Shown here: positions 6,001-38,723 of the stretch, piece after piece | Numbering within the stretch: position 1 is the stretch's first letter | How the letters are laid out: each line of letters starts with the position of its first letter | NCBI GenBank assembly: GCA_011634665.1 | Contig: WAEK01000007.1 | Location: 2,204,501-2,268,500 of the forward strand | Direction: 5' to 3' | Origin: Mortierella sp. BCC40632 | Taxonomy: Eukaryota > Mortierellomycota > Mortierellomycetes > Mortierellales > Mortierellaceae | Length of the DNA stretch: 64,000 nucleotides | Position numbers and translations under genes: made by a program | Notes under the pieces: model-generated | Told to the model about the DNA's origin: nothing | Seen by the model: the letters and a program-made list of their open reading frames with translations, nothing else | The model's database searches: none

Positions 6001-7560
6001 GCACGTGGAAGGAACTCACCGACAATGTCAATACCATGGCCGCTAATCTAACTGCTCAGGTGCGAGATATCGCTAATGTCAGTAAGGCTGTCGCCAAGGG
6101 AGACCTGACCAAGAAGATTTCCGTAGATGTCAAGGGAGAAATGTTGGATCTCAAGAACACCTTCAACATCATGATTGACCAGCTGCAAGAGTTCGCCACA
6201 GAGGTCACACGTGTGAGTTTGGAAGTCGGTACCATGGGTAAGCTCGGTGGTCAGGCTGTTGTCAAGGATGTCAGTGGAACATGGAAGGAACTTACAGACA
6301 ATGTCAATATCATGGCAGCCAACCTCACCACTCAGGTACGATCGATTGCCGAAGTCACAACTGCTGTCGCAGCTGGTGATCTGAGCAAGACCATTGACGT
6401 TGCAGCTCGTGGTGAGATCTATGAACTGAAGAACACGGTCAACTCAATGGTGGAACAGCTCCGAACGTTCGCTGCTGAGGTCACTCGTGTCGCCCGTGAG
6501 GTCGGAACTGAAGGAAGGCTTGGTGGCCAAGCTGAGGTCGAAGATGTAGGCGGTACGTGGAAGGAACTCACGGACAATGTCAATACCATGGCCGCCAACT
6601 TGACTGCTCAAGTACGTGACATCGCCAATGTTAGTAAGGCTGTCGCCAAGGGTGACTTGACCAAGAAGATTTCCGTGGATGTCAAGGGTGAGATGTTGGA
6701 TCTCAAGAACACCTACAATATCATGATTGACCAACTGCAAGAGTTCGCCACAGAGGTCACACGTGTGAGTTTGGAAGTCGGTACCATGGGCAAGCTCGGT
6801 GGTCAAGCTGTTGTCAAGGATGTCAGCGGTACATGGAAGGAACTCACAGACAATGTCAACATCATGGCAGCCAATCTTACCACGCAAGTACGATCGATTG
6901 CCGAAGTCACGACGGCTGTCGCAGCTGGAGATCTGAGCAAGACCATTGATGTTCAAGCCCAAGGAGAAATCTTTGAGCTCAAGAAGACCGTCAATGCCAT
7001 GGTGGAACAACTCCGGACGTTCGCTGCTGAAGTCACTCGTGTCGCCCGTGAGGTCGGAACCGAAGGAAGACTAGGAGGTCAAGCAGAAGTCCAGGATGTC
7101 GGAGGCACGTGGAAGGAACTCACGGACAATGTCAACACCATGGCCGCCAATCTGACAACTCAGGTTCGTGATATCGCCAATGTCAGTAAAGCCGTAGCAA
7201 TGGGAGATCTGACCAAGAAGATTTCCGTGGATGTCAAGGGAGAGATACTGGATCTCAAGAACACGATCAACTCCATGGTAGATCAGTTGTCGATGTTTGC
7301 CAATGAAGTTACTCGAGTCGCCCGCGAGGTCGGAACTGAGGGTAAGCTTGGTGTACAAGCCGAGGTGATGGATGTCCGAGGAACATGGAAGGAAATCACG
7401 TCGAATGTGAACACCATGGCTGCCAACTTGACTGCTCAGGTGCGTGCATTCGCCTCTATCTCGAGTGCTGCCACGGACGGAGACTTTACGCAGTTCATCA
7501 CGGTTGAAGCCTCGGGAGAGATGGATTCACTCAAGACCAAGATCAACCAAATGGTCTACA
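1..7560 (+). repeat. Tandem coding repeat: 276-bp HAMP units
   Basis: The coding sequence is built from 276-bp (92-codon) units. Two kinds mostly alternate: A units reading [16 protein letters not shown] and B units reading [16 protein letters not shown], giving a 552-bp higher-order period. The alternation slips at the 2489-2585 intron, where two A-type units are adjacent. Some blocks are practically identical at the DNA level over more than 200 bp, for example around 1040-1270 and 5277-5507. The last unit, from about 7420, is divergent ([16 protein letters not shown]) and leads into the kinase. Such an array can expand and contract by unequal recombination, so its copy number may vary between strains. 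Confidence 0.9.
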
Positions 7561-9589: not shown

Positions 9590-10727
9590 TCTCCAAGTTT
9601 TTTGTTTTTGAATGAAACGTTATTTTTGTTTGTCTTTTTTTTTTTTTTTTTTTCTCTTTTCTCTTTGTCGCTATTTTCAGTTTTTTTTCTTTTTACTTTT
9701 CTTTTTACTTTTACTTTGCTTTGTCCGCTTTGCCCCTTTTCCTTTCATTTGGTATTCAGTTTGTCTTAACAATTTCATCCAAAGTCATTAAAAAGCAGAG
9801 TAACTATCAAGGAGCCTTTGCGTGTAAAATGCCCAGAATTTCCGCATAGTCACCAATCATTGCCTTTTTTTTTTTTGTCAAAGAGGCCGTTTTTTTTCTC
9901 GTTCTCTCTCTGGTCTGGGGACCTCTGTCATCGTTTTGATTTTTCCTTGAATAGATTTGGTTGATTGACCGACACGTATATGCAAAGGCCCGGCTTGCTG
10001 GATTCATGCAAGATGCTTTGGGGAACTTTTGGCATGATTTGAAAGGGGGGAGGGGGAGGTGAATGGGCCTCAGCCTATTTTTTGTGCATGGTTGCACATC
10101 CTGCATAAAGTATCAGGTAGTGATCCTCAGGAAGGAGGAAAGGAGAGAGTAAGAGAAGGAATAATGCACCATGCTCTCTTGAACCATTTATTCTGCAACT
10201 GTCGATGCTCAGAATGTGAATAGGCCGAGCTCCCTGGTCGATGGTAGTTCATTACAGGTACAAATGGGTTCTTACAGCGATACTTTTAGTGCAGTTCTAT
10301 GAGTTTTCATTATGTGTTACTCTCCTGAATTTCTTCCGCCTCCTCTCCACCCCTCCTCCCCCACCCTCTCCTTTCCCTTTCATCAGCCCCTTTGTTAGCT
10401 CCCTGTTTTTTCTCTTCCGAGATCCTATCGCACACTATTGGCACGCTTCACACAGGTCCTCTGCTTTCTATAGTTCTCTAGATTTTGGAATCTAATGGTC
10501 ACTCCCTTCTCCCTTTCCTGTCTTCCTGTTGAAAAAAAAAAAAAAAAAGGCGATACGTTATTCATCTCAAGCAGAGGGAAGGCTTCGGCAGTCGGACATC
10601 CCAGGATTTCAGTTGGCACAGCCTCACGATACCATGGCGCGTCTGACCCTTTGGGCTTTCGGATAAAGAGATTGAGACCGCGCCTCTAGCTCTCCAAAAT
10701 CAATTAACGACTTCGATTCCTTGGACC
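9590..10727. other. Intergenic region downstream of the kinase
   Basis: No coding region is supported here. The stretch just after the kinase stop is T-rich, with long poly-T tracts near 9635-9655 that would fit a 3' untranslated region. A further A16 tract lies near 10531-10546. Short open frames on both strands have low-complexity translations and no recognisable domain. Confidence 0.6.
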
Positions 10728-10808
10728 CATGACTGCGCCTCATTCGGGTGATCTATAAAATTTGAAGTAACCGAGTTCCGAATTACTCCTCATAGCTCTT
10801 CTCATCCA
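10728..10808 (+). promoter_or_regulatory. Duplicated upstream block of F-box gene copy 1, with TATA-like box
   Basis: These 81 bp immediately upstream of the start codon are identical to 17349-17429 in front of the second F-box copy (constant offset of 6,621 bp). The block contains a TATAAAA motif at 10754-10760, about 50 bp before the ATG, which fits a core promoter or short 5' untranslated region. The identity begins abruptly at 10728, which marks the left edge of the duplicated segment. Confidence 0.6.
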
Positions 10809-12341
10809 ATGTCAAGTCGTTCTTCAAGACTCTCTATCTTCAGTATCCACCACATTGTTGACAACATCACCGACTGGCTCTTCTCTTCCGATATCCGTTC
10901 TTGTCGCCTCGTCTGTCGCTCTTGGAACCAATCCTTCTTCCCATTTTTCCATAAATACCTCTACTTTCCTGCTGAGGCGGTTAGAGGTCCAAGATCCCTC
11001 GATGAGATTGAGCATATTTTCCAGAATGCTCATCAAGTCCGGTCACTGAGGGCAGAAGACAACCTAACTGTCCTTACCCTCAGTAAGGTCAACTATCCCA
11101 ACCTCAAGACATTCGAATACTCTAATAGCGTATGGATTCCGGGGTATATGACACCAGAGGAATTACAGAACTTTTTCAGGTTCATAGGAAACCATCCAAC
11201 TTTGGATCATTTTGTGTTCAAGCCTCAAGGAGTGATTAGACGTTCGGATTTAATACCATTACTCAGTCCCACGTTCCGGAATCTCAACAAACTGAGGACA
11301 CTCGACATTGAGCTTGATAGTGACCAAATCAGCCTCGCGATCATAGCTTACCTTCCGCCCAGTGTCGAGGAACTCACCATTGACTCGACCAATAACTGGT
11401 GTAATCCTTCTATTCTGGAGGACGTGATTTCTGACCCTTTGCCTCAAGTGACATTTTCAATCCAAAGGCTAGTCCTTGGACTCCACTCCGATGCGCTTAC
11501 CCACCCAGTGATAGATCGTCTGCTCAAGAACAGTCCCCGCCTTTGTCAACTCGTGATCACAGCTAATTCTTTGGAAATTCTTGGATCCGACGTTGAATAC
11601 ATGGCCCTCTTTTGGCCATCACTCATCAGTCACTGTTCAACCTCTCTTGAACAACTAGGCTTTTCTAGTAGCTGTTTTATAAGTCCCCACAACCTTGTCA
11701 AGCTTGTCCAGCACTCGCCACGACTTTGGCATGTGATGCAGTTTGAACACAACGTGTGGGACTTTACACCTAATTTATCAATACTCGAGGATCAATTCTT
11801 CTACAAGTCACCATATCAAGTCTCGACCCCTGGAGTGACTCACTCCTTCTCCAGTTCTCTAGCCCCGACGTTAACTACCATCCATATCGATGGCCATTGG
11901 TGCGCCTATCCTGGAATCCCTTTCATTGTCTCGACATGCGTCCACCTAATCGTATTGAATGTTACCCTTCAGAACCAAAAGCTTTGCCCCAACATTACTC
12001 GAATTGGCGTCAGTATCTTGGAACTCAATAGTGTAGAATGGGTTTGCTCTCAACTCAAGTTGCTGGCTTTACCCTTGGTTGCTCAAAGAGTTTCAACTGT
12101 CCGACCTGTCAACATTGAAGATCAAGAACCGATTCCTTTACAAGAGATTGCAATCCATGTTCTAGATCTACTTTACAAGGTTCGCTCGCTTAAACACTTG
12201 AATCGAGTTTCCTTTCAATGGAACCCCAGCCAAGAGTTTGGAGAGTCGCTTGAGGCTGTTCAGGGATATGCCGAGATGGCGGGATACAAACAGAAGATCA
12301 CCAAAGAAGATATAGACTTATTGGGGATCAACTGGCTTTGA
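10809..12341 (+). CDS. F-box / leucine-rich-type protein, copy 1
   Basis: Single-exon protein of 510 residues. The N-terminus (residues about 9-50) is F-box-like: IHHIVDNITDWL followed by DIRSCRLVCRSWNQSF, the pattern that binds Skp1 in SCF ubiquitin ligases. The rest is a run of irregular leucine-rich segments, for example 'HPVIDRLLKNSPRLCQLVI' and 'CPNITRIGVSILELNSVEWV', expected to form an LRR-like substrate-binding arc. The start at 10809 lies just after an upstream block that is also duplicated at the second copy. The frame stops at TGA 12339-12341 after NWL, at a point where copy 2 continues for about 130 more residues, so this copy looks C-terminally truncated by a stop codon. Substrate unknown. 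F-box families are highly expanded in this kind of fungus. Confidence 0.78.
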   Translation: MSSRSSRLSIFSIHHIVDNITDWLFSSDIRSCRLVCRSWNQSFFPFFHKYLYFPAEAVRGPRSLDEIEHIFQNAHQVRSLRAEDNLTVLTLSKVNYPNLKTFEYSNSVWIPGYMTPEELQNFFRFIGNHPTLDHFVFKPQGVIRRSDLIPLLSPTFRNLNKLRTLDIELDSDQISLAIIAYLPPSVEELTIDSTNNWCNPSILEDVISDPLPQVTFSIQRLVLGLHSDALTHPVIDRLLKNSPRLCQLVITANSLEILGSDVEYMALFWPSLISHCSTSLEQLGFSSSCFISPHNLVKLVQHSPRLWHVMQFEHNVWDFTPNLSILEDQFFYKSPYQVSTPGVTHSFSSSLAPTLTTIHIDGHWCAYPGIPFIVSTCVHLIVLNVTLQNQKLCPNITRIGVSILELNSVEWVCSQLKLLALPLVAQRVSTVRPVNIEDQEPIPLQEIAIHVLDLLYKVRSLKHLNRVSFQWNPSQEFGESLEAVQGYAEMAGYKQKITKEDIDLLGINWL

Positions 12342-15884: not shown

Positions 15885-17348
15885 CTTTTTGTCTTTTTTT
15901 TTTAAAAAAATTCCGGGGTAAATGCAACTGAAAGATGAGCTCGATTCCTTGTTCTGACGATATGGCGAAGCCTTTTTGGTTTTTTATTATCTTCTTTATC
16001 CTGAAGAAGAGTCTTGTGGTTGCTTATGCTGGCACAAATGGTCTTTCCAGATGGTGAAACGCTTTATAAAAATAAGATTGAGCAACAGCAAGAAATGTCC
16101 TGTCATGCCAAAATGGATGCATCAGAGTGCGCCCTGAAAAAAAGTGTGTGGCTTGCCTGATCCGCCCATACTCTGGGCTGGTGGCGCTGCTTAAATGTCT
16201 CGGCTTCGCCGGAAACCTTTGTGCCTTCGCCTTCCTTCCTCCCCTCCCCTTCTCCTGCGCCAAGTTAATGGGTCGAACGCTACTTCGAATAGTGAGTGGA
16301 GATCTATTCTCGTTTGGACAGGTCACGAAGGTTAATGCGCTGAAGATATTCGGTAAAGGCTTTCCTTTTCGAACAAGGGGAACAACGGCAACCCGCATAC
16401 CGTTGTGTTGGTCTTCCAAACAACTCTAAAAGTGAAGATCTGGTCGCCAGGTCAGGAAACTAAACATTTGCAATTCACTGCATTCCGTCCAGGACACTAT
16501 CTGACGCTCCACACATATATTTAATGCCTCCGTTTCTGCACACAGCGAGTTTCATAGCCTAGCAGCAAAATGTTGCAAAGAGATGATGCATTGAGACACA
16601 AAAAATTGATCGTTGTTACTCCCACTGCCCGTGCCCAGTTACCTCATAACCCTGCCCACCATAACCAAAAACGAAAGCCAAAAAGTCAACCAGGCTGTCA
16701 ATGATTTAATACTCTTCCTCCAACCCTTTCTGCTCAAAACTGCATTTGAAGATGTAGTAGACTTGTCTAGAAGCTCGAGTGAATGAAAAACCTGAGCTCT
16801 GCAAAAGGACAGTCTATGGTTCACAACAGCTCTTGTGCAACGCCGGTCACATTCCTACCAAACAACACTTACAAAGACACCCAAAATGCAACATCCCAGC
16901 CCCCATTTCTTGTCTGTCATGGTCCTGTACCTCTATGCCTCAACAAAAGATGGAGGCCACGACTACGTAGAAGAAGATGCAAGGGAAACCCCCCCAACAT
17001 CAAGAATCCCGTTCTCGGGTGACAAAAGAGATCACAAAATCAGCTACCTTGCTCCGACGCGCATCTCACGGCAGCTGCTCTTTTCTCCAGAATTGTGAAG
17101 GCCCAGTGGTATTCGCGATTTTTTTTAGAGCCAAGTAAAAATTTCCTCTTTGTCGTCAATGATCAAGTCTCAGAAGCATAGCCGTTGAGCATAAAATTGA
17201 ATGAGCCGGTGCTGCTGCCTGACTGCTGTGAGAGCGTGCTGCCTTAGACGCGACAGAGAACAATAGGAGGCAGCCATATACTGTGGTTCTCACAAACAAC
17301 ATCATACCCTGTCTGTTCGTCTAAAATCATGCTTCGCCTCCTTGGTCT
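15885..17348. other. Intergenic region upstream of UBA2
   Basis: About 1.46 kb between the UBA2 start and the duplicated F-box segment. Small overlapping open frames lie at 16024-16430 and 16779-17098, but none has recognisable domains, start context or splice structure. The UBA2 promoter must lie at the left end. The right edge at 17349 is the start of the F-box duplication block. Confidence 0.5.
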
Positions 17349-17429
17349 CATGACTGCGCCTCATTCGGGTGATCTATAAAATTTGAAGTAACCGAGTTCC
17401 GAATTACTCCTCATAGCTCTTCTCATCCA
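17349..17429 (+). promoter_or_regulatory. Duplicated upstream block of F-box gene copy 2, with TATA-like box
   Basis: Exact counterpart of 10728-10808, including the TATAAAA motif (about 17375-17381). The identity runs on into the coding sequence, so the promoter was duplicated together with the gene. Confidence 0.6.
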
Positions 17430-19319
17430 ATGTCAAGTCGTTCTTCAAGACTCTCTATCTTCAGTATCCACCACATCGTTGACAACATCACCGACTGGCT
17501 CCCCTCTTCCGATATCCGTTCTTGTCGCCTCGTCTGCCGCTTTTGGAACCAATCCTTCTTCCCATTTTTCCACAAATACCTCTACTTTCCTGCTGAGGCG
17601 GTTAGAGGTCCAAGATCCCTCGATGAGATTGAACATATTTTCCAGAATGCTCATCAAGTCCGGTCACTGAGGGCAGAAGACAACCTAGCTGTCCTTACCC
17701 TCAGTAAGGTCAGCTATCCCAACCTCAAGACATTCGAATACCAGCACAACGTATGGCCTTCGACGATTTTACCCCCGGAGAAAAATCAGAGCGTACTCAC
17801 GTTCATAGGAAACCATCCAACTTTGGTTCATCTTGTGTTCAATCCTTTTACATCATTTAGTCATTTGGGTTCGATATCCTTACTTGACTCCATGTTCCAG
17901 AATCTCAATGGACTGAAGACGCTCGAGGTTGGGTTATATAGTGACCAAATCAGCCTAGGGATCATGGCCTACCTTCCGCCAAGTGTCGAGGACCTCTCTC
18001 TCACCTCATATACCAACTTGAGATCCAATACTCCACAGGGGAACCTGTTTATAGACCCTCTGCCTCAAGTGGCGTTCTCGATCCAGAGATTGAAACTCGC
18101 CTTCAATGTGAAAATGTTTATTCACCCGGTGGTACATCGCCTGCTCAAGAACAGCCCCCGCCTCTGCCAATTCAAGATTAGTCCGGATGATGGATACTCG
18201 TACTATGATGATGTCGAGATGATAGAGTCATTCTGGTCGTCCCTCGTCAACCATTGCCCGACTTCCCTCGAACAACTAGTTGTCTTAAGAGCCCCTGACA
18301 TGAGTGCCATGATTCTTATGCAGTTTGCTACGTGCTTTCCACGACTTTGGAATCTGATGCATTTCGATGAGTATGAACACGATTTTTTACCCGGGTCATC
18401 AGCCCCCAAACACCTGCCTCATCCCTTGTTCTCTCAAGTCTCGGCTACGACAATGATTCAACCGCTTCCCATTTCTCCCGCCTCTTCATTGACTATTATC
18501 CGGATCACGGACAACAACGCGACAAATTCTGCAGTCCCGATGATTATTTCGACATGTGTCAATCTGCTAGAACTACATATTGTATCGAGAGGCGTTAGTC
18601 TCTTGGAGTTAGCTCATGCAGAATGGGTTTGCTCCCAACTTGAGGTTCTGGTCGTCCCTGTGGCAGCTCTGAGACGCTCTACCGAGGCAGGCTTCCTAGA
18701 TGACCAACACGAGGCACTCTCTCAACAAGAGATTGTGATTCATGTCTTGGGTTTGCTTCACAAGATCCGACAGCTCAAGAATCTGAATCAAGTCGTCTTT
18801 CAGTAGACTCTGAAAAAGAATTTTGGGATGTCTCTCGAGACTGCTCAAGGACTTGCCAACTTGGCAGGATACGAACAACAGATCACTAAAGGAGATGTAG
18901 AGCTGTTGGGGGTTCGGTGGTTATCTCTTGAAGAGTTGCAGTCGAGAGAGAGGCTGCGGCGGCTGTGCTCTATTGCCGAAGAAAGTCATCCAGGAATGAG
19001 ATTCATTCCCTTGTTGGATGAGGCTGAATACCTACAAAAGCTAGAGAGCTATCGATACAGAAGTGATGTCTATGAAGAATTTTACTTTGAAGGTTGGGAA
19101 GAGGTATCGTACGATGATGGATACTATAGTGGACTGGTCGGGCAACAGCATGGGGTGATACGAGATGATTGTTTTATGGATGGATATCTAGATGGTCAAT
19201 TCGATAGCTACACGTACTTTGAGGATCTAGAAAAGGAGGAAATGATGGAGGATCCGACTTGTGGAAGACCCTTGACTACCAATTGGAAACACTACTCTAG
19301 GCATGGCAAAGTAAAATAA
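17430..19319 (+). pseudogene. F-box / leucine-rich-type protein, copy 2, with in-frame TAG
   Basis: Paralogue of the gene at 10809. The first about 100 codons are nearly identical (F-box DIRSCRLVCRFWNQSF) and the leucine-rich part is diverged. The frame is interrupted by a TAG at 18804-18806, exactly where copy 1 has TGG (Trp) in FQWNPSQ. The same frame then stays open for another 171 codons to 19319, first continuing the homology to copy 1 and then adding a C-terminal extension rich in acidic and aromatic residues (EEFYFEGWEEVSYDDGYYSG). No plausible intron removes the TAG, since a splice around it would be under 30 nt. It is either a recently inactivated gene, a gene coding for a 458-residue shortened protein, or a readthrough case. 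The intact downstream frame argues for a recent change. Confidence 0.75.
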
Positions 19320-27529: not shown

Positions 27530-29108
27530 TCAGTCATCACCGAAATAATAATAGTCTAGTTCACCACTCTCTCCAGCAGCCGCCTTTCGTTGCCTCACCG
27601 TTTCGGCTTCAGCTCTAGCTCTCTCCCGTCCTTCTTCGACCAATGCGCTCAGTCGATTCTCTTTAGCAAGGCCTTTCAAAATCTCGTAGATCATGGGCAC
27701 AAAGTTGTGTTTCCTCAATACATTCTCCCGTTGCTGCTTCTTGCGCTTTTCATGCTCCTTGCGAATATCTTCTGTTAGATTGTTCAGCTCTGCGACAAGC
27801 CAAGATCCAGCATCGGGTCCTTCCTTTTCCCGGAGCTCTTCGAGTTGTACCGTGTATTGAAGAATCTTGTCTTCATAGGCGTCGATCCGGTCATTTACCA
27901 CGGCCATCAGGTTAAACCGGATCTCGCCAGATGAGGCGTATTGAGCCATTCGTGATTGGATGATTGGCCCCACTTTCTCAAGCCAAGCATCCTCCCCTTC
28001 ACCACAAGGTCCATGGTTCCGAGGGCCTTCCTGAAGTCCATCGAGCTCGTACAAGTTGCCGTTGATGGGAGTATAGGCAATAAAGTGGAAAAGATCTTCG
28101 TCCTGTGCGGATGGGTCCTGAATGTCATTGATAAAGGGATCCGAACGAGAGAACGAGTTGTGGACAACCCTGATCACCTCCGAGTTGGTAATTGCGTATC
28201 CCTTCAACTAAAGAGGGGGAGGTGAGGTGAAGGGGAAAGAAAAAGATGATTCGCTTGTAAATATATACTGTCTCATGATTCTGCGGTATACAACAACTCT
28301 TTCCTTCACTAGGCTGTCCTGTCTCTTACTTCTGGTGGAAAATCAGATACGAAGGTCTTGAAGTTGGTCAACTCCTCTCCAAGATCAATATTCTTCGAGT
28401 TGAGCAAGATGGAAAGGATGGCTTGAGTCGCACAGGCATTGTTGATAACCTAGATAGGAAGCGTCCAAGAATCAAGGCATCAGACTATTTGTCTACTTGT
28501 AAAAAAAAAAAATACACAGGACTTTTGCTGATGCTAGCAATCATAAAAGAAGCAAGTAGCTGTGGAAACAAAAAAACGGACCTGTTGAGCAAAAAACACG
28601 TCTCCACTATAGTCAATTGGAGCTTGAGAATCTCCGGCTCCTGCATTTGCTGGTCCGCGTCCCTCCCACTTGAACAAGAAGATGAGCCCATGGACTGGCC
28701 TGTTTGGGTTGGTTAAGTGAAGGGGGGTGACGGAAGGATGTCATGGTTAAATCCTGTGCTCAAATATTGAAAGGAAAGGACCACAAGGACATACACACAC
28801 ACACACACACAAAGAAGATTTGCATACTTCAGATCGGCGAGCGTCTCTTGATCGATAGAGTAGATCTCTTCTACTTGAATGCCTGATACGCCTATACCCT
28901 TGATGATTCCCGTAAACACGCCTGATAAATTGGGTTTTGTATTAGGCTTTGGGGAGAAGATCTCCAGCTCCAAAAAGAGTAGAAATGCAGGCGAGTTTTT
29001 TTTTTTTTTTTCTTGACAAGATTAGATCAAAAAGAACAGCCTTCGTCATTCTCAAGACATTTTACCTGGGTCGCTTTCAATGAGACACCAATTTCCTGAG
29101 TCTGACAT
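27530..29108 (-). CDS. Ubiquitin C-terminal hydrolase UCHL5/UCH37
   Basis: Proteasome-associated cysteine deubiquitinase (peptidase C12). Five exons, 29108-29066, 28921-28828, 28699-28582, 28449-28330 and 28207-27530, join in phase to give 350 residues (human 329). The N-terminus NWCLIESDPGVFT and VHGLIFLFKWEGRG are family signatures. The catalytic set is complete: oxyanion Gln at about residue 85 and Cys at about 91 in FFAQQVINNACATQ, His at about 166 in LFHFIAYTPING, and Asp at about 181 in NLYELDG. The C-terminal helices (RENVLRKHNFVPMIYEILKG) form the UCH37-like domain that contacts the proteasome receptor Rpn13 (ADRM1) or INO80 subunits. The third donor is an uncommon GTCCGT. Its start lies only about 230 bp from the end of the Fanzor-like gene on the same strand. 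Confidence 0.93.
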
Positions 29109-29339
29109 CTTTTTCTTTGAGCTTTTTCTTTTTGGTCGAATTACAGGCGCAAGGACTCATTACGCTGATGCCAGCCCCTCTGAGTGTCCTTATGCACTGA
29201 CCACAAGGAACTAATGAAATTGAAAGGAAATAAAGATTTAGTGTGAGCACCCGATCATGATGTGTGCCCATAGGTGTGGAATAGGCCAGTAGCACTTACC
29301 TCTAAACTAATTCTCGTGTTTGTAAACACGCATAAGACT

Positions 29340-29720
29340 CTATTGTCTCTTTGTTGATGGTCCAGCTATGGACTCTGTATCTTGTATCTGCCTCGGAGAC
29401 TCTGCCAAAGATGATCGCCATCCATACGAGCCGTCTCCGTGCACAGGCAAAAGATATCGAGGCCGTTGCTGGCTCTGTAAGTGCTCCCTTACTGCCATTG
29501 TCATATTGCTTGCTGCCAGAACGTCGCGGTGGAATGGCGTCTTGCAGGACTCACAAAATAGCCTGCGAATCGATGCAGACGAGACAAAGTCTAATGGGTC
29601 CCTCCCACTGCGTTGGCATTTTGGGCATCGCTTCGAGGTGTAGTACTCGTTGATTCCGACCACCAGGTAATCGAGCGATCTCGCCTAGAAGTTGGGAATG
29701 CAGAGAAGACTAGTATGTCA

Positions 29721-29755
<35 letters not shown>

Positions 29756-31673
29756 ATCCAAACCTGCGAAACATACTGTACACTTACTTTGGCAATAAAG
29801 TAACTGAGGAATGATCCATGAAGGGACATCAAACCTCTAGGGCTATCAAACGATCCAAGTCCTACAACAACCAAGGCTTTTTTTCGCAGGGGGCTCGACG
29901 CGCGCCAATGCTACCTCCCCAACATTGACAGCAGCCTGTCAGTGACAATCCCATACTCGCCTTCTCGAGCCTTGTTAGCATCCCATCGAGCACGAAGGAA
30001 CTTTGCATTGTGGCCATTGTAGAACTTCCAAAGGTCCTTGCCATGCTCCATCTCTGCCTTGATCCTTCCTCTTGGGTCTTGGTCAAGTGATGGGATACTT
30101 GACTCGATGTCGGCGATGGACACACCAGCTCCGTTCTCTTCATTGTCTTTTCGCTGTTGAAGCTCTTGACGAAACTTGAACGTTGGCTGATAAATAGCCT
30201 TGTTCTTGACTACAAGAGAAAGACCAACCCCTGGGTGATCGGCTCGAACGGCATAGGCTGCAACCGTGCACGCTTGGCCTGGATCCAGGCAAAGAATATC
30301 CACATCTTCTCCTACATCATGTGTCGGTGGACCTGGTCCTTGGCCAAATATTTGTTCCACGCGCTCTTTCGAGTCCAGGACGTTCCGGATCTCTTTCAGG
30401 AATTGGTCGTGACCTTCCTCAGGATCATAAAGTTGATCAGAGCAAGGCACATGTCGCTCCTCGGCCAGGGCGAAGCGTTTACTTCGTCGAATGGATAAAT
30501 TGATAGCCCTTAGATGCAGTTCGACTCCGTTGGTTTGGAAAGAGCCATAGAGAGCATACTTGAAACGAGGTTGGTTGTCCGTGGACTGAACATCTTCCAT
30601 CATGGTCTCATCCGTGGATACAGCCGACTCTCTCCGCACATCTTGGAGTGTAGCGCTGCTTGAACTGTTACTCATTCCATCCAGAATAGCGGCCATCTCG
30701 TCCTTCGTGGTAACCGTAGTGATTTTCGCTAGCCCTTTTCGGCATGATGAGGTGGACCCCACAGGCGAGATGACTTGATTGATCAGCCAGCCAGGGGGGA
30801 GCGTATCCAAGGTCGGCACGATTGACATTTTCTCAGTCTCTGGAAAATGCTCTTGGATAAGGCCACCGAGATATGCGTCCATAGCCTCGCTGTTCTCGCA
30901 AAGTATGTAGAACAGCTCTCGCTCAGACATAGAGATAAACCTGTTGGCAATGGGTGAAAGTGGTAGCTTGGACGGCTTGCCTCGAGTATGATCATGGAAG
31001 AAGCGCTGGTATTCCACAGACATTGTTATCGATACTGAATCAAAAAGGCAATCTGCAGTTTCACCCTTTCTCTTTTTGCTTGGCTCTCTGGTTTTCCGAT
31101 TGGGTGTTTCCGTGAAGACCTCGTAAAAAGAGCTTAGGATCTTTCTGATCAGGGCCTGGTGGGGACTCCGCGCCGATGGTGCGTCTTCGCGGTAATAAAG
31201 ACATCGGAGCAAGGTCAAGAGAAAGCTGGCAGAATTCGGGTCAGAGCCTTCTTCGCCTTCATTGGTATCAGAGTCTTCACCCGTGTCCTTGTCATCATCT
31301 TTGGCCTTATCGACGTCGTCCACAACTTTTTGTGTAGGATTGCTTTCAAGGACTCCAGCTCAGGCGCTGCGCTCGACTTAATGAAAAGGGCGAGAGCCAG
31401 CTGGGCTTCACGCTTGACCGAGTTCGCATCGTCAACACAGTTCCAAATGATTGTCTTGACTACCTCCTGTGAATGGATAGGTAATGCGGTGCGTTTAACG
31501 TTTGTGGTCAGAGCTCCAACTGTCAGTGTTGACATGCGATGTTCTCGAACCATTCTCTTGACAAGCGTACGCTTGTTGGACCCAGAGAACGACTTTGATG
31601 ACCGAGTTGTCGTCTTTTCTTTTCTTGTTCTTTTTCTTTTTGGTTCACGGGGCTCCGTTTCAATGTGAGTGGG
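29340..31673 (-). other. Fanzor/TnpB-like RuvC and zinc-ribbon module of the fusion gene
   Basis: The region resumes in frame at about 31673 after a TAG acceptor. Helical segment 'VVKTIIWNCVDDANSVKREA', acidic loop, 'SVEYQRFFHD' and 'KYALYGSFQTNGVELH' precede RuvC-I (DILCLDPGQACT). RuvC-II cannot be assigned with confidence. The C-terminal exon reads VGINEYYTSKRCPKC, then FCESCKTPFHRDVLAAS: a four-cysteine zinc ribbon followed by the RuvC-III Asp, the order seen in TnpB and Fanzor proteins. Thus both end aspartates of the RuvC site are kept although the frame is interrupted. The gene's last intron (29787-29685) holds a poly-T tract of more than 30 on the plus strand. Confidence 0.75.
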
Positions 31674-32117
31674 CTAGTATTTGGCGTGGTTGCCGTTGTC
31701 TCCTTCATGGGCTTCCATTGACTGCGCCTGAGGGTAGCTGGTCTCTCATATTCCTTTTTACTCTCTCGGTCGTGCGTACGGATGGTGTATCGTGGCCCAG
31801 GTTTTGGTGTTGATAATGGCAATGGGCTTTTGGGGTCAACGTCCATATTTTGTGATAGCAGCGGGCTTGCTAGGGGTGCTCTTGATAGAGTAAAGGCTCT
31901 TTCCACGCGGATGGTTGCACTACTGCATGCAGAAGCATCCATCGGTCGAAACCGATTGTACTCTTGGTTCCTGCTCCTTCGGCGTGTCTGAGTATTCTCT
32001 GAGGATCTGGTAGGGGGGTGGGGGTTATAAAAAAAAAAAAAAAAAAAAAAAAGGTCAGTATCGGACTATAATCATGCAACAGGCTATTTAATAGAGGAAA
32101 GAGGAACGACATCCTAC

Positions 32118-33200
32118 CTCTTTCCAGCCATAACTGACAAGCGCATGGCTTTTGCGGCAACAACCCTGTTCTGTAGACTGAAGACTTCACTGTTCCTGAG
32201 GACCGCCTGGCCATTGGAGATCTTGGCCTCTTCAAGGACACCCATTATCTCTTGACCATGCTCGTACACAAGCAGAGCTTGGGAATAATCGATAGGCCTG
32301 CTTGTATTCTTGCTGACCCTGGATGATCTACCATACGCATCGACTAACTCACCAACGCTTGCTGTAATAAAATAATTGAGTAGCCGATTCATTAGGACTA
32401 GCAAGTCAATGCCATAATGAATGTAGATAATCACCTTGAGTAAGCCCGCGAATGATGCCAAGGTTCGACTTTGTTCCTAGTCCAGGAGCGTTGTCGCTGT
32501 AGTCGTTAAGAGAAACAACCGCCAGAGCTGTCAGCTGTGCCCGGGATAGTCCGAGGGCCTTGGCACAGTCATCGACATCATATCGCTTGAACCTGGAGCC
32601 CGTTGGACGAAATACAACCCCGATGTTGCGATGGGCCAAGAAATCCGAGTCGCCAGACACAACCAACACGGATTGTCCAGACCGTGTTAAACTATCGTGT
32701 CGGAGTCTGACAGCGACGTCAGCCTCACCAGGCGCCCGGTGAGCAATCCAACCGGTTTTCTGAAGTCCTTTGGTGATTTCATCTCTGTCCTCGACTGTCA
32801 GGGAAACCGCCGAATCAGTGATGCGATTAAAAATCTGATGCTTGGTCCGTGAAAGAGGCTTGCCCATTTGGGCTCTTCTCTCCGCTTCGTCAACCAGCTT
32901 GTGGGCTTTCTCAACCTTTTTGTTTACAGCGGCTGTCCTCCGGGCATGAGTTCTTGCTTTGTTCTTTGTTGGATAACCATCCACGAAAATTTCGGTAAGA
33001 TGGGTCTTGGGAAGGCGCTCCGAGAGGAACTTGTCCAGGATCGCGGCTCGTCTCTCGGGATGACATTTGGTGTAAATTTTTTTTATTCTCCAAAAATATG
33101 CTCCAAATAAATCGACGAGTACCCTCGTTCCTTCTGGTACTGTTTCTTCAGGAGCCGTGATAGAGCCATCGATGAGTCTCCATAATCCGGCGACCCCCAT
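32118..33200 (-). other. XPG/FEN1-like nuclease module of the fusion gene
   Basis: N-terminal part of the fusion gene, intact over about 336 residues. It starts MGVAGLWRLI, as in the XPG N-terminal domain. All seven acidic residues that bind the two metal ions in FEN1 have counterparts: Asp30 (VLVDLFG), Asp74 (IFVDGYPTK), Glu159 and Asp161 (GEADVAV), Asp184 and Asp186 (VSGDSDFLAH) and Asp233 (LNDYSDNAPGLG, helix-hairpin-helix region). The spacing is close to human FEN1 (34, 86, 158, 160, 179, 181, 233). The family cuts flaps and branched DNA. No separate stop or promoter lies between this module and the Fanzor module, and exon phases continue into the linker, so one polypeptide is the simplest reading. 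A catalytic nuclease beside an RNA-guided nuclease could process target or donor ends, which is inference. Confidence 0.82.
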
Positions 33201-33533
33201 TGCTAAGCGTGACGGGGACGCGTGTATGAGTGTAAAGGAGGTTTGAAGGGCGAGAAAAAAAAATAAAGTAGGAAGGTTGAGAGTTGAGAAAGAGAGAGAG
33301 AGGAAGAGAGAGAAAGAGAAAATGTTACCACCACAAAGAGAGTCCTAATACGCTCCGCCACCCCCCCTCCCCTCCATTGTTCTACTAATTTTGGGCCGTC
33401 CAATCAGCGTTAGACAAGATCAATGTAGCCAAAAGGCACCAATCTCCTACTATGGATGGAGACTAACCTGTGTCTGAAGGCAAAAAATAAATGTAAATGT
33501 GAAAATTTATTGCTTCTAGTGAGCTTTACTGAA
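33201..33533. other. Spacer between the two Fanzor-like genes
   Basis: 333 bp with a GA-rich tract near 33287-33320 and a C-run near 33361-33368. It is at once the 3' flank of the upstream Fanzor copy and the promoter region of the XPG-Fanzor gene. No open frame of note. In Fanzor loci the guide RNA often lies at or past the 3' end of the gene, so this is one place to look, but no conserved structure is visible by eye. Confidence 0.4.
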
Positions 33534-36500
33534 CTAGCCTAGTTTGCCCTGCGTACCGCAGGGATCCCCCATCGCATCTCTAACTGATGTTGGAGGCATA
33601 GTAAGTTGAGCTATCTCCTGTGAATATGAACAGGTATGTTTGGTGGGACGGATTGTCCTTGTAAATGGCTCCAGTGTATGTCTCTCCAGTGAGAGTAGAG
33701 TCGACCCTCCTGCTATCGCAATACAAACGGCTGCGTTCACATCCCGGGACTTGATCGTATGTCCTCGCTGGACTGACCCGCACTGGCTGTTCGTACACTC
33801 CATTGCTCCATTCACCTGAACCATCTTCTCCTTGCCATCCACAATCCGACGCGACCGTGCCTTCCTCAATTGACCAAAACACTCGGCACACGTCTGGCTC
33901 GTCCTGAATTCATCAGTAAGTCCAACCACTCCGTACCGCATATGCTGCTCTCTCATCTTTCCTCCTCCCCGTCTAGCGTGCCCTCCAATTCTGCTTCCTA
34001 CTCCCGTTCCTCCCCGACCCCACCAGCATCACTGGGATGAGTGATGGACCATTCTTGCGACACCGAGCCAGGTGCTGGTAGTTACCCCAGGTACACGCTA
34101 TATGGTGCCGTTGGCAACCACCACACCATCCATCTGACGGGGATACCTCTAGAACATTAAAAGAAGAAGACTCAGTAAAAATAAAAAAAAAAAAAAAAAA
34201 AAAAGGACATTTTGTTCTGCTCAACTGTACCTGATGGGCTCTCTGACCCAAACGTTTCCAATGCGTGATTCTTCACATACTCCCTCTCTGCTGCCGCCAC
34301 CTTCCCCCCACACCCTTCTTGTGCGAAGTCGCTGGTTATGCAGATCCTTCAACCTTGCCTTGGATTTCTCAAATCCCTTCAATGCTTTGCGTGACTCTCG
34401 ATGCAGCTCATGCGCCCTGTCAATCTCCTCCATCGTCTGTGCTGTCTTCAAAACTTGTTCCTTGTCTGAGAGCTTCTCCAGTGCTTCGCGTACATCACTA
34501 TTCTCCGGTCTCTTAAGTCGCATCTCTCGCCTCTTGGCTACCCGTCGCATCCCTGAAGCTTCATTGAGCTGAGAGGTGCCGTGATCTTGAATGGACGACT
34601 CTGGGGTGTCCATTGTTCTCTAGAGGCAGTTGCCTCTCCTGATGACTCCTCATCCGGAGGTGGTGGCCATGGCTCAGGATTAGAGCTCCCAAAGGTTTCC
34701 TCCGCATCCTCTTCTGTGCCTATTCATCATTAAAAAGCTATTAGATGCGCTGAGCTTGACAGATGACCGACATTATTCCTTACATCTTGCCCATTCAACT
34801 TACCATAAAAAGTACAGCATATCGGTTGATATGCGTCTTGATCTCGCCCAGGGTCTGTGCACATGTTACACTCATCGTTCGAATCCCTGGATCTGTCCCT
34901 GCAAAGACAATTCTGTCCTCTGGCAACTTGGAAATATCGAGGCGCCTCGTTGAATCCTCGACTGTAAAATCCTTCACAGTAGGTGTGGTGTACTCCACCG
35001 CCTTTGAGCCATCCTTGCTCTTTGGGGTCTTTGCTGTAACTACCCTGCGGAGCCCATTCCAGTAACTCCTCTTTTTCCGCAGGCGTCGCAACTGACTCTC
35101 CTGTGGCTGTACAGTTGCTCGAAGAGCTCGCACCTTTCTCCTTGCTTCTTGAAGAACGCGATATGTCTTTTTTTGCTCACTCCCTCTTCCGTCCTCTACA
35201 CTCTGAATATTGCCCTCATTCGTGTCTACACCCCCGATGCCTTCCTTGTTTGCCTTCTCATTCTCTTTTCTGACTGCTGTGCGGTGGTTCTTGGCTGTCA
35301 GGCTTTGATCCGTCTCGAGCACCTTGAGTTCCTTTCGGCCTCGCTTGATTCTACTCTCAAGGTCTTTGATATTGCTCTCTACTCTCTTGATCTCTTCAGC
35401 AATTGTTTCCACTTCCATCTTTTGATACTCTATCTCTTTGGTCCAGTCCATAGTATCAGTCCTGACCTTGGCCTTGACCCGCCTCTCGTAGTGGCTGAAC
35501 AACGGGCGACCTCCACGCTCGGCTCCCTGTGGAATCACTTCACCCAAAATCCGGACTGTGTACCTATCGACGAACATCATTCTGTCCGCAAATCTGAGGC
35601 CATGCTTGCGACACAGCCTTTGAACTTTCTCCAAGTCGAAGAATACCCCAAAGACTGCGTCCTTGTGATGTGGGACTCTTTCTCCGGCTATTAGAGGAGT
35701 GCCTTCAGAGTTCTTGATATCAAAGTGGCCTGGCGTCTTGGCACACAACACCTCGTATAACCCCTTCGCTCCAAGAATCAATGCATGACTGGAAGAAGGT
35801 GATATCTGCGGTGACAAAAGCCGAGTGTGCTGAGGATACCCAGCCGCTCTTTGAATTGCGTTGGCAATGATGGCCATAGGTGCAAGCAAAGTAGCGTGGG
35901 CCAAGGGCGCCCTCGTTCCACCTTGGGGTCTCGTCTCTCGGCTAACTCGACGTTTTGCAACATAGGGTCGAAGTGCGTTGGCCAGCTTGGCTACAACACT
36001 GCATTGCTCCTCGGTGATATCCATTCCGCCGTGTGCTGACTTTCTGACCCAGTTGTTGTCGATTTCCTTCTCGATTCGGGGGTGACTCTAGGAGCATACG
36101 AAGAAGTCTCCTCAAAAAGACAATATGATCGCTCTTGTTGGCTCTTTAGCGAGAGAATCCCCTAATTCGTTTTCTAGTTCTTCCTCCATCTCATCGAGAT
36201 CCCAGTCGTCGAAATCAGACCCTTCGAGATTGTCAGAGTCCTGATCTTTGACAGTTCTCCTTTGGGTCACACCATTGTCCTTGTTGTTCACCTCAACCAC
36301 CGGCTCTTTGACAAAATCTTCCTCCGGTTCTTTAATGTCCCAATCGTCAAAATCAATCCCTTCAAGGTCGTCCGTATTCAGGTCTTCGACGGCTCTCCTT
36401 AGGGCTTGAATACTGGATTCACCGCCCGCCTCGACTGTCGGCTCTTTGACAGGGTCACCCTCCAGTTGGCTAAAATCCCAGTCATCAAAATTGACCCCTC

Positions 36501-38723
36501 CGAAATTGTCCGTATCCAGATGTTCGAGTCGGACATCCAGTGGTTCAAAACATTCCGCCCCAGCGGTTTGGGCTGTGTACTTGTGAGCCAGGATGTATTC
36601 AATCCTGTGCAGGACCGATTGAATCCGTTGCCCATCTCCGGTTGGGTCTTTGTCAAGAGCACGGTTGAGATCATCGCAGAGCACCAGGATTGTCCGTTTC
36701 CATCTACTCTTGCCTACAGTTGCATTCTTGGGATGACTTTTCTTTTTCTCGTGGCCTGACGACTTGAGTTTTTTTCTCTCTGCTTTCGCTCTCTCTCTGG
36801 AGCCAGATGGAGCCGCAATAGAAGCAAGAGAGTGTGATCGAGAAGCTTGTCATACATCTGGCCTCCCCCAAAGGTTCTCGATGTTTGTAGCCATTTGCTT
36901 CAAGTGCTCACTAACAGTACTTGAACGGCCTCCAACATCTACTGAAAACTTGCTTTTGCCCGATGCGAGGTTACCGACCACACTGCTCCAGACCTGTCGC
37001 CTGGCTTTGTTCGCTGCGTTAACTCCTTGAGCTCCGAAGAACCAAGAATACATGAACAGGAGAAAGCTATACGACATTAGAGTTGTCGTGTCGCTCTTTT
37101 CTCTCGGCTTCCAGGTGCTCTGGCAAAAGGTCAGGAAGGGCCGCAACTGGGAGCAAGGACAGGACAGTCTTGTCCCGAAACTCGAATCCTGCCGGAAAGA
37201 CCGACTGGATGTCAAAGGCCATCTTGGTAGATGGATTGATGTAGTGAGTCCCTGATGCGAGCTAAAAAAAAAAAAAAAAAAAAGAGGTGATATTCATTTG
37301 TCAGTAATAGAAAAAAAAAAATAATAAAATAAAATAAAATAAAAATGCAGAGCCATTACCTCATGAACCGCCTTCGTAGCCAGCACCGAGATTTTCCTCA
37401 CAAACCACCGTCATAGCCTCTTGACTTTTCTCTGGGAGAATTCGGATTCTCTCTTTGTCCTCTGTACAAAGATCAGGCCGAAGAACTTGCTGAAGTGTGG
37501 CTGTGCAGGATCGGAGCTGTCTCTGATCGGGTCCAGTCTCTTCCTCCATCTCGTAATCACCATCGCTGCCACCATCATCGCCATCACCGTTTCTTCCGCT
37601 TCCTCTCCTACTACTACTACCTCTTCCTCCTCCTCCACTTGTTCTAGCTGCCGCATCGACTTTATCGTTCGAGTCGGCGCGACCCTTCCTTTTTAGACAG
37701 CTTTTTGGTCTTGGCCTCTTCTTCTGCCTCCCATAGTGACTGAAAGTTTGCTTCGAGGTAGCTGTTCCATTGGTTGACGGTGCCGTCCTTCCCCAATTTT
37801 TGTCCATAGTAGTCCTAGAAAGATCTCGGGCGGCCACGTTGGAGGCTCTTATGGTATCGAAGGCGGACTTTTTGATGCATAGAGGAAGTCTCTTTGTTGC
37901 AATAAGAGACTGGTAGGCTTCCCCTTTGTCTTTGCCCTTTAAGATGCTTCCTTTAATGCGGTTTGCTATGTAGTCATGCCTGCACAGTATCAAGTGGAGA
38001 AGCCATTAGATACACCATGCTTTATGAGGCTATTTCTGCTATCGAGTACTTGAAAAGTACATGTTTAAACATTACCTTGCTTTTTGAAGGCTTCCTGGAT
38101 ATCAGCGTCCGCAGGATCGTCTAACTTCCGTTTTTTAAAACCGCTATAGGTTCTTGGGCCTGTGCGGTAGACCGCCGGGGAGTAGCGGCTATGGTATGGC
38201 TGGGCTGGAGGTTCTCCTGGGGTATGTTGTTGGACCGAGTAGTTCTTGGATGGCACCAATGCCAAACACTCCCTCGTCCCAAGGTAGGAGTCAACGTGTT
38301 GAAGAATACCGATTGACATTGTCGAGTCTTCGCTCCTGAAGACCTTTGTCTTTTTCGGGTGGAGAAGACAAAAATGTCAACGTGTAGCTCTGATGACAAT
38401 AGTCGGAAATGCAGGTTGCTGTGGGGTGGGATGTCAACTGATGTGTCTCCAATGGTAAGAGTGAATAGAGGGTTTCGAGATGCAGTGTTATTGAGAAGAC
38501 TTTGCACGATCGATGTTGTCGCTGGTACCCGAGATGTTTCAAGTGGAGCCATGTCGACGACGATGCCCTGTCGGCAGAGTGTCTCCATCGTACTTGCCCT
38601 GTTTTCCAATTGACAGTGGTCAAGGGACAGAGTACTCTCCAGTCTGGGTGCAAGAGCAGGGTCATGCCTCTCTAGCATGCTCCTCCAGACTCTCAAGAGT
38701 CCTGCGCTGTGATCTCTTTGCAA
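33534..38723 (-). pseudogene. Second Fanzor (TnpB-like) gene, frame-disrupted
   Basis: Minus strand, upstream of the fusion gene and the same orientation. Fragments in order: N-terminal part 38723-38076 (possible internal ATG at 38678; HVDIFVFSTRK, then after a frame change SIGILQHVDSYLGTRECLAL); an exon region 37985-37361 with Lys- and Gly-rich parts; 37264-36850 (THYINPSTKMAFDIQSVFPA and later helices); an acidic repeat region; an intact stretch 36087-34804 of over 420 codons with a coiled coil and RuvC-I VFAGTDPGIRTM (Asp codon 34893-34891); a helical region to 34231; and a C-terminal part 33956-33534 with zinc-ribbon Cys (TCAEC, ECTNSQC) and RuvC-III Asp in SRDVNAAV (33743-33741). The frame must change at least at 38351-38355, 38081-38085, 37797-37801, about 34575 and 34012-34015. 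It differs from the other copy in N-terminal region and has no XPG domain. Confidence 0.75.
36130..36530 (-). repeat. Three 46-residue acidic repeats with FDDWD core
   Basis: Within the second Fanzor-like gene, the motif FDDWD occurs three times at exact 46-residue spacing (NFGGVNFDDWD, DLEGIDFDDWD, NLEGSDFDDWD), each followed by a Glu-rich stretch and, in the first two, VKEP. Such acidic, tryptophan-containing repeats resemble protein-interaction or activation motifs. I know no named domain for them. The frame is intact across all three units, then meets a TGA at 36114-36112. Confidence 0.75.

What the first reader, a model, noticed from the sequence alone, without database searches (positions are those of the whole stretch)
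29340..33200. An XPG/FEN1-type flap nuclease fused to a Fanzor (eukaryotic TnpB) module
Seen in the sequence: an XPG domain with all seven metal-binding acidic residues in FEN1-like spacing leads, through in-phase exons and a basic linker with no intervening stop-promoter pair, into a module with RuvC-I (CLDPGQ), a four-Cys zinc ribbon and RuvC-III (HRDVLAAS). Known: Fanzors are RNA-guided DNA nucleases, and XPG enzymes cut flaps and branched DNA. Inference: one protein may join guided cutting with end processing, perhaps for transposition or homing. I am not aware of a characterised XPG-Fanzor protein, but could not search.
Basis: partly seen in the sequence, partly recalled or inferred. Interest (0 to 1): 0.92.

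Follow-up and report, generated by a model that had tools for sequence, protein, structure and literature searches.

The report
XPG flap nuclease fused to Fanzor
A family of mobile-element genes in a Mortierella-like fungus encodes one protein that joins a DNA-flap-cutting nuclease to a Fanzor, the eukaryotic relative of CRISPR nucleases, with the active-site residues of both kept; the copy in this window is itself damaged, and no activity has been tested.

Summary
The fusion is real. In the window (minus strand, 33200-29340) an XPG/FEN1 domain with all seven metal-binding acids leads into a Fanzor module (RuvC-I CLDPGQ, alternative glutamate NEYYTS, four-Cys zinc ribbon, RuvC-III HRD). Relatives settle the matter. 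The same genome holds a six-exon, unbroken paralog (1342 aa) and 20 XPG+RuvC pairs on one strand in that order, none in opposite orientation. Two paralogs have single uninterrupted frames crossing from the XPG domain into the Fanzor. 39 of 56 homologous proteins, from nine genera of Mortierellaceae, carry both halves. AlphaFold of one (1186 aa, pLDDT 84) matches EXO1/FEN1 over residues 2-297 and Fanzor PpFz over 445-1122. One subfamily is a ~6.9-kb element pairing the fusion with a divergent MULE-type transposase. Most likely the Fanzor part makes a guide-RNA R-loop and cut, and the XPG part trims flaps or junctions, helping the element home or persist. Guide RNA, cleavage and expression are untested. 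My searches of an open-access library found no description. New variant of a known kind (Fanzor1).

The parts
32435..33200 (-). Exon 1: XPG/FEN1-type 5'-nuclease domain (MGVAGLWRLID...), all seven metal-binding acids, H2TH-like NDYSDNAPGLG region (H2TH label recalled)
32118..32361 (-). Exon 2: C-terminal part of the XPG domain
   Evidence: in frame between GT-AG introns 32434-32362 and 32117-32007
29788..32006 (-). Exon 3: basic linker, Fanzor REC/WED and RuvC; as read broken by four frame changes (about 31.6, 31.33, 29.92, 29.88 kb)
   Evidence: REC/WED by position relative to the P0008 model
30274..30291 (-). RuvC-I motif CLDPGQ (catalytic D at 30285-30283)
29340..29684 (-). Exon 4: alternative catalytic Glu (GINEYYTSKRC), four-Cys zinc ribbon (TNB), RuvC-III HRD, stop
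   Evidence: Pfam PF07282 E=6e-11
29182..29339 (-). 3' non-coding part of the element, ending in a small hairpin and ...AAGGACACTC; last base shared by five copies with five different flanks; where a guide-RNA scaffold would lie by analogy with SpuFz1
   Evidence: hairpin; analogy PMC10432273
33201..33443 (-). 5' non-coding part of the element; left end set by one copy (C18) only
33533..37500 (-). Neighbouring, different multi-copy element (runs on beyond 37500) with an unfused Fanzor-like protein (TDPGIRT; zinc ribbon at 33.6-34.0 kb); not part of the fusion gene but adjoins it

Best explanation
The window holds a decayed member of a multi-copy mobile-element gene family of a Mortierellaceae-type fungus. 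The intact gene makes one protein of about 1,140-1,360 aa: an N-terminal XPG/FEN1/EXO1-type 5'-nuclease, a basic linker and a C-terminal Fanzor1 (REC, WED, RuvC, zinc ribbon). SHOWN by sequence and predicted structure: the fusion, both folds, conservation of both active sites, dispersal in several subfamilies, and in one subfamily linkage to a divergent MULE-type transposase. INFERRED: the Fanzor part binds a guide RNA made from the element's 3' end, opens an R-loop at a matching site and cuts with RuvC; the tethered XPG nuclease cuts the single-/double-strand junctions and flaps of that R-loop or of the nicked product. The result would be a processed break whose repair copies the element from another allele or restores it after the transposase has excised it (homing or retention).
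Against: The window copy is broken, and of the paralogs only C9 was shown intact. No transcript, guide RNA or cleavage data. The 3' region of the window's subfamily does not fold better than shuffles over 139 nt (z -0.18); its last 45 nt do somewhat (z -2.6; two relatives -1.2 and -1.9), and subfamily C's last 58 nt strongly (z -6.05). FEN1's E160 is Asp in this family. 17 of 56 homologs lack the XPG part, and one locus (BGX26_003973/003974) is annotated as two adjacent genes. 22 of 42 XPG loci had no RuvC match by this query; two of them proved to have a diverged Fanzor half, one is a deletion derivative, 19 were not resolved. The MULE gene was found next to 8 fetched loci, not next to the window's subfamily. 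8-bp target duplications fit at 2 of 4 copies checked, one of them A-rich; no clear terminal inverted repeats. RuvC-I is DPG in only 2 of 53 rows with all three letters, although DPG is near-exclusive in Fanzors (PMC10711439, passages). Clade G failed the spacing test to RD.
Confidence: 0.62

Rival explanations
1. The XPG part works on the transposase's products, not on the Fanzor's: it removes flaps or resolves branched DNA left by MULE transposition, and the fusion merely keeps two element enzymes together.
For: A MULE-type transposase gene lies head-to-head with the fusion gene in subfamilies C and D and at C6 and C9. The XPG fold is closest to EXO1/FEN1, which act on 5' flaps and recessed ends (recalled; also in the titles of the matched structures).
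Against: No MULE gene was found beside window-type (A) copies or subfamily B, whose left end lies about 140 bp before the ATG, yet these keep the fusion and have recent copies (outside the window only about 1-1.5 kb upstream was fetched).
Confidence: 0.2
2. The XPG part has become a structure-specific DNA-binding module that helps the Fanzor find or open targets and no longer cuts.
For: Its sequence has diverged far from known XPG proteins (Pfam XPG_I scores below cut-off in the window exon and in C9).
Against: The metal-binding acids are almost invariant among rows with letters and are present in two deeper clades F and G.
Confidence: 0.1
3. Two separate neighbouring genes, wrongly joined by the reader and by annotation pipelines.
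For: One locus of Mortierella sp. AD094 is annotated as two genes (BGX26_003973 XPG, BGX26_003974 RuvC). No RNA data here.
Against: Uninterrupted frames cross the border in C1 and C7; unbroken C9 model; 39 of 56 homologs hold both halves in one protein (not all independent).
Confidence: 0.03
4. The family no longer serves mobility but has been taken over by the host (for example defence against other elements or repair).
For: Signs of purifying selection on both halves; presence in nine genera.
Against: Recent, dispersed, partly broken copies with shared ends and different flanks, as expected of a transposable element.
Confidence: 0.05

Closest known systems
Fanzor1 (SpuFz1, GtFz1, PpFz1; PDB 9cey/8gkh, 9cer, 9cf0)
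   Same: Same fold over residues 445-1122 of P0008, alternative RuvC-II glutamate six residues before the zinc ribbon, D-X188-TS-..-C4-..-RD spacing in P0008, fungal transposable-element setting.
   Different: About 300 aa of XPG/FEN1 nuclease plus a ~150-aa linker at the N-terminus, about doubling the size (most Fz1 are 600-700 aa, PMC11423790 passages); RuvC-I mostly DLG, not DPG.
FEN1/EXO1/XPG (RAD2) 5'-nucleases
   Different: Low sequence identity (about 15%); tethered to a Fanzor instead of carrying repair-protein-binding tails (the latter recalled).
Fanzor1 elements of the MuDR superfamily in Rhizopus, Phycomyces and Mucor (Bao and Jurka 2013, PMC3627910, passages)
   Same: Fanzor1 gene carried by a Mutator-like element in early-branching fungi.
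   Different: Those elements are said not to encode MuDR transposase and to have TIRs and 9-bp TSDs; here a MULE-type transposase is present in some subfamilies, no clear TIRs were found, 8-bp TSDs fit at 2 of 4, and the Fanzor carries XPG.
PpFz1 with Fanzor RuvC Insertion domain (PMC11423790, passages)
   Same: A Fanzor1 with an extra domain in an early-branching fungus; the only Fanzor among the 50 rows by Z.
   Different: Its extra ~100 aa lie inside RuvC and bind cyclophilin; no nuclease fusion is mentioned in the passages seen.

Membership tests
Fanzor (eukaryotic TnpB) | RuvC D...E...D catalytic triad with the rearranged Glu six residues before the first zinc-ribbon Cys (PMC10711439, passages) | tested here: met
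   Window NEYYTSKRC; alignment D 54/54, E 40/41, D 36/36 of rows with letters; E-x2-[TS][TS]-x2-CxxC in 34 of 56 proteins
Fanzor (eukaryotic TnpB) | D-X(125,275)-[TS][TS]-XX-[C4 zinc finger]-X(5,50)-RD (PMC3627910, passages) | tested here: met
   P0008: D-X188-TS, C4, RD; clade F also, clade G only up to the ribbon; Pfam PF07282 E=6e-11 in window exon 4
Fanzor (eukaryotic TnpB) | DPG at RuvC-I, near-exclusive in Fanzors (PMC10711439, passages) | tested here: inconclusive
   DPG in the window copy and in clades F and G, but DLG 38, DGG 7, DAG 5, DPG 2, DMG 1 among 53 rows with all three letters
Fanzor (eukaryotic TnpB) | Fanzor1 overall fold (REC, WED, RuvC, TNB) | tested here: met
Fanzor (eukaryotic TnpB) | Guide (omega) RNA from the 3' end of the locus and RNA-guided DNA cleavage | not testable with these tools
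   Only structured 3' ends seen in some subfamilies
XPG/FEN1 5'-nuclease superfamily | Seven metal-binding acids in FEN1-like order (FEN1 numbering recalled) | tested here: met
   Window exon 1 and alignment columns; FEN1 E160 is Asp in all 35 rows with letters
XPG/FEN1 5'-nuclease superfamily | FEN1/EXO1 fold | tested here: met
XPG/FEN1 5'-nuclease superfamily | Flap or junction cleavage | not testable with these tools
   no biochemical data
Mutator-like (MULE/MuDR) transposon | MULE transposase in the element | tested here: met
   Subfamily C only: FAR1 0.0016 and MULE 8e-4, both below Pfam cut-off, SWIM 8e-7 above it. Not found in the window
Mutator-like (MULE/MuDR) transposon | 8-11-bp TSD and usually terminal inverted repeats (recalled; 9-bp TSD and TIRs for fungal MuDr in PMC3627910) | tested here: inconclusive
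   8-bp TSD fits at C3 (CCACTACC) and C2 (AAAAAAAG), not at C25 and C4; no clear TIR

The most novel reading that the evidence does not exclude
A single-protein, RNA-guided nuclease with two kinds of active site: the Fanzor RuvC makes the guided R-loop and nick, and the built-in XPG/FEN1 nuclease cuts that R-loop's flap or junction. It would thus make a defined, pre-processed break that a MULE transposon uses for RNA-guided homing or targeted insertion. It would be a third layout beside one-RuvC Cas12/TnpB/Fanzor and two-site Cas9.
Probability: 0.35. Interest if true: 0.94.

Novelty: new variant of a known kind. Interest (0 to 1): 0.85.

Why it matters
Known Fanzors cut with one RuvC site and, as far as I know, leave end processing to the host. 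A natural fusion to a flap/R-loop-junction nuclease, with both sites conserved across a fungal family, would show that evolution has coupled guided cutting to end processing. It makes testable how eukaryotic transposons use Fanzors, because some of the same elements also carry a transposase. It could also be a compact natural source of guided breaks with defined ends.

Tried and rejected
Rejected: (1) two separate genes, because two paralogs have one frame crossing the border. (2) Window copy as an intact gene, because of four frame breaks. (3) The neighbouring element at 33.5 kb onward as a second fusion: a profile scan of window ORFs of 30 aa or more finds no XPG beside its Fanzor. (4) Elements with terminal inverted repeats: none clear. 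Led nowhere: Pfam barely sees the XPG domain. The folding of L069 used the wrong coordinates and strand and is not used. The RuvC-I expression was faulty and was replaced. The PDB search with the RuvC half alone gave only weak hits (LaTranC 3e-4, Mimivirus L79 1.8e-3); the fold search resolved it. No homolog of either half was named outside Mortierellaceae in the rows shown (120 of 195, many of them unnamed; 34 of 34), which is limited by the word-based search. Literature: PubMed Central open library only, no bioRxiv collection, most subscription journals missing. Fanzor+XPG 0 papers, Fanzor+Mortierella 0 (12), TnpB+Mortierella 0 (54), TnpB+XPG 1 (55, passages in 58), TnpB+flap endonuclease+fused 1 (74, listing only), Mortierella+transposable element+XPG 0 (93), Fanzor+flap 15 with 10 listed, listing only (94), Fanzor alone 82 with 40 listed (18), a five-term search needing four, 15 of 24 listed (73). 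Of the papers cited I saw passages, plus outline and abstract of PMC11423790; the start of further abstracts in listings.
Full report
WHAT IS IN THE WINDOW. On the minus strand an ATG at 33200 opens an XPG/FEN1-type domain. Exon 1 runs 33200-32435, exon 2 32361-32118, exon 3 32006-29788 and exon 4 29684-29340, with GT-AG introns between them (read). Exon 1 holds the seven acids (RVLVD, FVDG, GEAD, SGDSD, LNDY). The Fanzor part holds CLDPGQ (RuvC-I), GINEYYTSKRC (the Glu six residues before the first zinc-ribbon Cys), a four-Cys ribbon and FHRDVLAAS. Pfam sees the ribbon (PF07282, E=6e-11) but barely the XPG domain (0.007). The reading frame of exon 3 is broken four times, at about 31.6, 31.33, 29.92 and 29.88 kb, in or near short homopolymer runs. 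The copy is therefore decayed, or the assembly has errors there.

THE FAMILY IN THE SAME GENOME. The window lies in a 49.9-Mb assembly. Searching it with the XPG exon gave 50 matches, and with the RuvC piece 50 (lists capped). Clustered, these are 42 XPG loci and 33 RuvC loci. 20 XPG loci have a RuvC match downstream on the same strand within 5 kb and none has one in the opposite orientation; one RuvC match upstream of an XPG locus belongs to the neighbouring pair. Of the 22 unpaired XPG loci I followed two downstream (C17, C20). Both have a more diverged Fanzor half, with DPG, DEFKTSRQC or NEFRSSITC, and RD, and both keep the seven XPG acids. One more (C19:451 kb) is an internal-deletion derivative. 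The remaining 19 were not resolved. The C9 locus reads as six exons with GT-AG introns into 1342 unbroken residues; other in-frame donors for intron 4 would give 1351 or 1353. At C1 (395 aa) and C7 (402 aa) single open frames align, at 32% identity, to residues 256-639 of the annotated fusion P0008, so the border between the nucleases is crossed without splicing.

OTHER GENOMES. A search with the C9 protein returned 56 proteins. 39 of 56 carry both halves, XPG first in all 39; 17 carry only the RuvC half (several are marked partial). The 39 come from nine genera, and the species named all belong to genera listed under Mortierellaceae. The RuvC-half profile gave 195 hits, of which 120 were shown, and the XPG-half profile 34; the named ones are all of that family, and many metagenome rows are unnamed. 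At one locus the halves are annotated as two adjacent genes (BGX26_003973/003974). Catalytic positions are nearly invariant in rows with letters, and 14 of 56 proteins hold all ten acids. Among 53 rows with all three letters the RuvC-I motif is DLG in 38, DGG in 7, DAG in 5, DPG in 2 and DMG in 1, which departs from the DPG said to be near-exclusive in Fanzors (PMC10711439, passages).

SELECTION AND DECAY. Between the window and C18 copies dN/dS is 0.32 (XPG), 0.15 (RuvC) and 0.09 (ribbon exon); other XPG pairs give 0.28 and 0.32, C18-C26 RuvC 0.17; two very close pairs give 0.56 and 0.90 on few changes. This fits past purifying selection on both halves followed by decay of individual copies. 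dS differs between the halves of the same pair (0.22 against 0.89), which suggests mosaic copies.

MOBILITY. Window-type copies on C7, C12, C18, C19 and C26 end at the same base (window 29182...AAGGACACTC) and then differ; the left end (33443) rests on C18 alone. Subfamily C is an element of about 6.9 kb (C25:175981-182906). Its left end in C25 is shared with five other copies within about 10 bases; four of these run about 20 bases further with a common sequence that C25 and C2 lack. Its right end is exact in four copies with different flanks. Beside the fusion gene it carries, head-to-head, a gene with FAR1, MULE and SWIM matches (E 0.0016, 8e-4, 8e-7; the first two below Pfam's cut-off). tblastn finds the FAR1 part next to eight fetched loci, including the intact C9. 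It finds none in the whole window, nor in the roughly 1-1.5 kb fetched upstream of C18, C12, C19, C1:564 kb or C7:572 kb. Eight-base target duplications fit at C3 (CCACTACC) and C2 (AAAAAAAG) but not at C25 or C4. No clear terminal inverted repeats were found. Fanzor1 genes inside MuDR-type elements of Rhizopus, Phycomyces and Mucor are known, there without a MuDR transposase (PMC3627910, passages).

3' ENDS. In Spizellomyces the Fanzor guide RNA is a conserved stretch of about 75 nt between stop codon and 3' repeat plus 14-15 variable nt beyond it (PMC10432273, passages). The last 58 nt of subfamily C fold far better than shuffles (z -6.05). The last 44-48 nt of three window-type copies form a small hairpin (z -2.6, -1.2, -1.9), but the 139-nt 3' region of the window copy does not stand out (z -0.18), and two 150-nt ends of a further pair (C11, C6) give -2.3 and -1.0. 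No guide RNA is shown.

HOW IT PROBABLY WORKS. Shown: fusion, folds, kept active sites, dispersal. Inferred: the Fanzor makes a guided R-loop and cuts; the XPG nuclease, whose human relative is cited as cutting an R-loop flank (PMC7286691, passages), processes the displaced strand or the nicked product; repair of the resulting break favours the element. The rival that XPG serves the transposase instead is not excluded.

NOVELTY. No held paper contains Fanzor with XPG or with Mortierella, nor TnpB with Mortierella; most subscription journals and the bioRxiv collection could not be searched. The proteins themselves are in public databases, nearly all as hypothetical proteins, one as 'putative transposase' and one also as 'XPG-I domain-containing'. 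I file the family as a new variant of Fanzor1.

Noticed in passing
window 33533 to at least 37500 (-): A second multi-copy element with an unfused Fanzor-like protein (TDPGIRT, zinc ribbon). 22 places, the window's own included, match a 2.85-kb stretch of it over its whole length at 98-100%, and 37 places besides the window and C12 share its 3' end; it stands 89 bp upstream of the XPG-Fanzor element.
   Followed up: partly
window 29182-37500 versus C12:41204-49492: The window and C12 share the XPG-Fanzor copy together with the upstream second element at about 98-99%, but differ right after the XPG-Fanzor 3' end, as if the pair had moved as one unit or by read-through of an element end.
   Followed up: partly
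C17 (L030, L085), C20 (L086) and relatives: Two further, deeply diverged XPG-Fanzor clades, one with several near-identical copies, both with all seven XPG acids and a DPG-type RuvC.
   Followed up: partly
C25:175981-182906 and copies on C1, C2, C3, C4, C15: A MULE-type transposase gene head-to-head with the XPG-Fanzor gene; left flanks of several copies carry a CGGTGACGTAAT-like motif also found near the element's right end.
   Followed up: partly
window copy versus C18: dS is 0.22 in the XPG exon but 0.89 in the RuvC exon of the same pair, suggesting mosaic (recombined) copies.
   Followed up: no
C19:449762-453529 (L008): Internal-deletion derivative: XPG part joined to the 3' end of the element.
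   Followed up: no
window 1-7444: Large array of roughly 550-bp repeats, about 67-90% identical to each other.
   Followed up: no
window 10711-11552 and 17332-18173: An 845-bp duplication at 82% identity.
   Followed up: no
window 27533-28207 (-): Ubiquitin C-terminal hydrolase gene (Peptidase_C12 E=1.6e-21), apparently a host gene downstream of the element.
   Followed up: no
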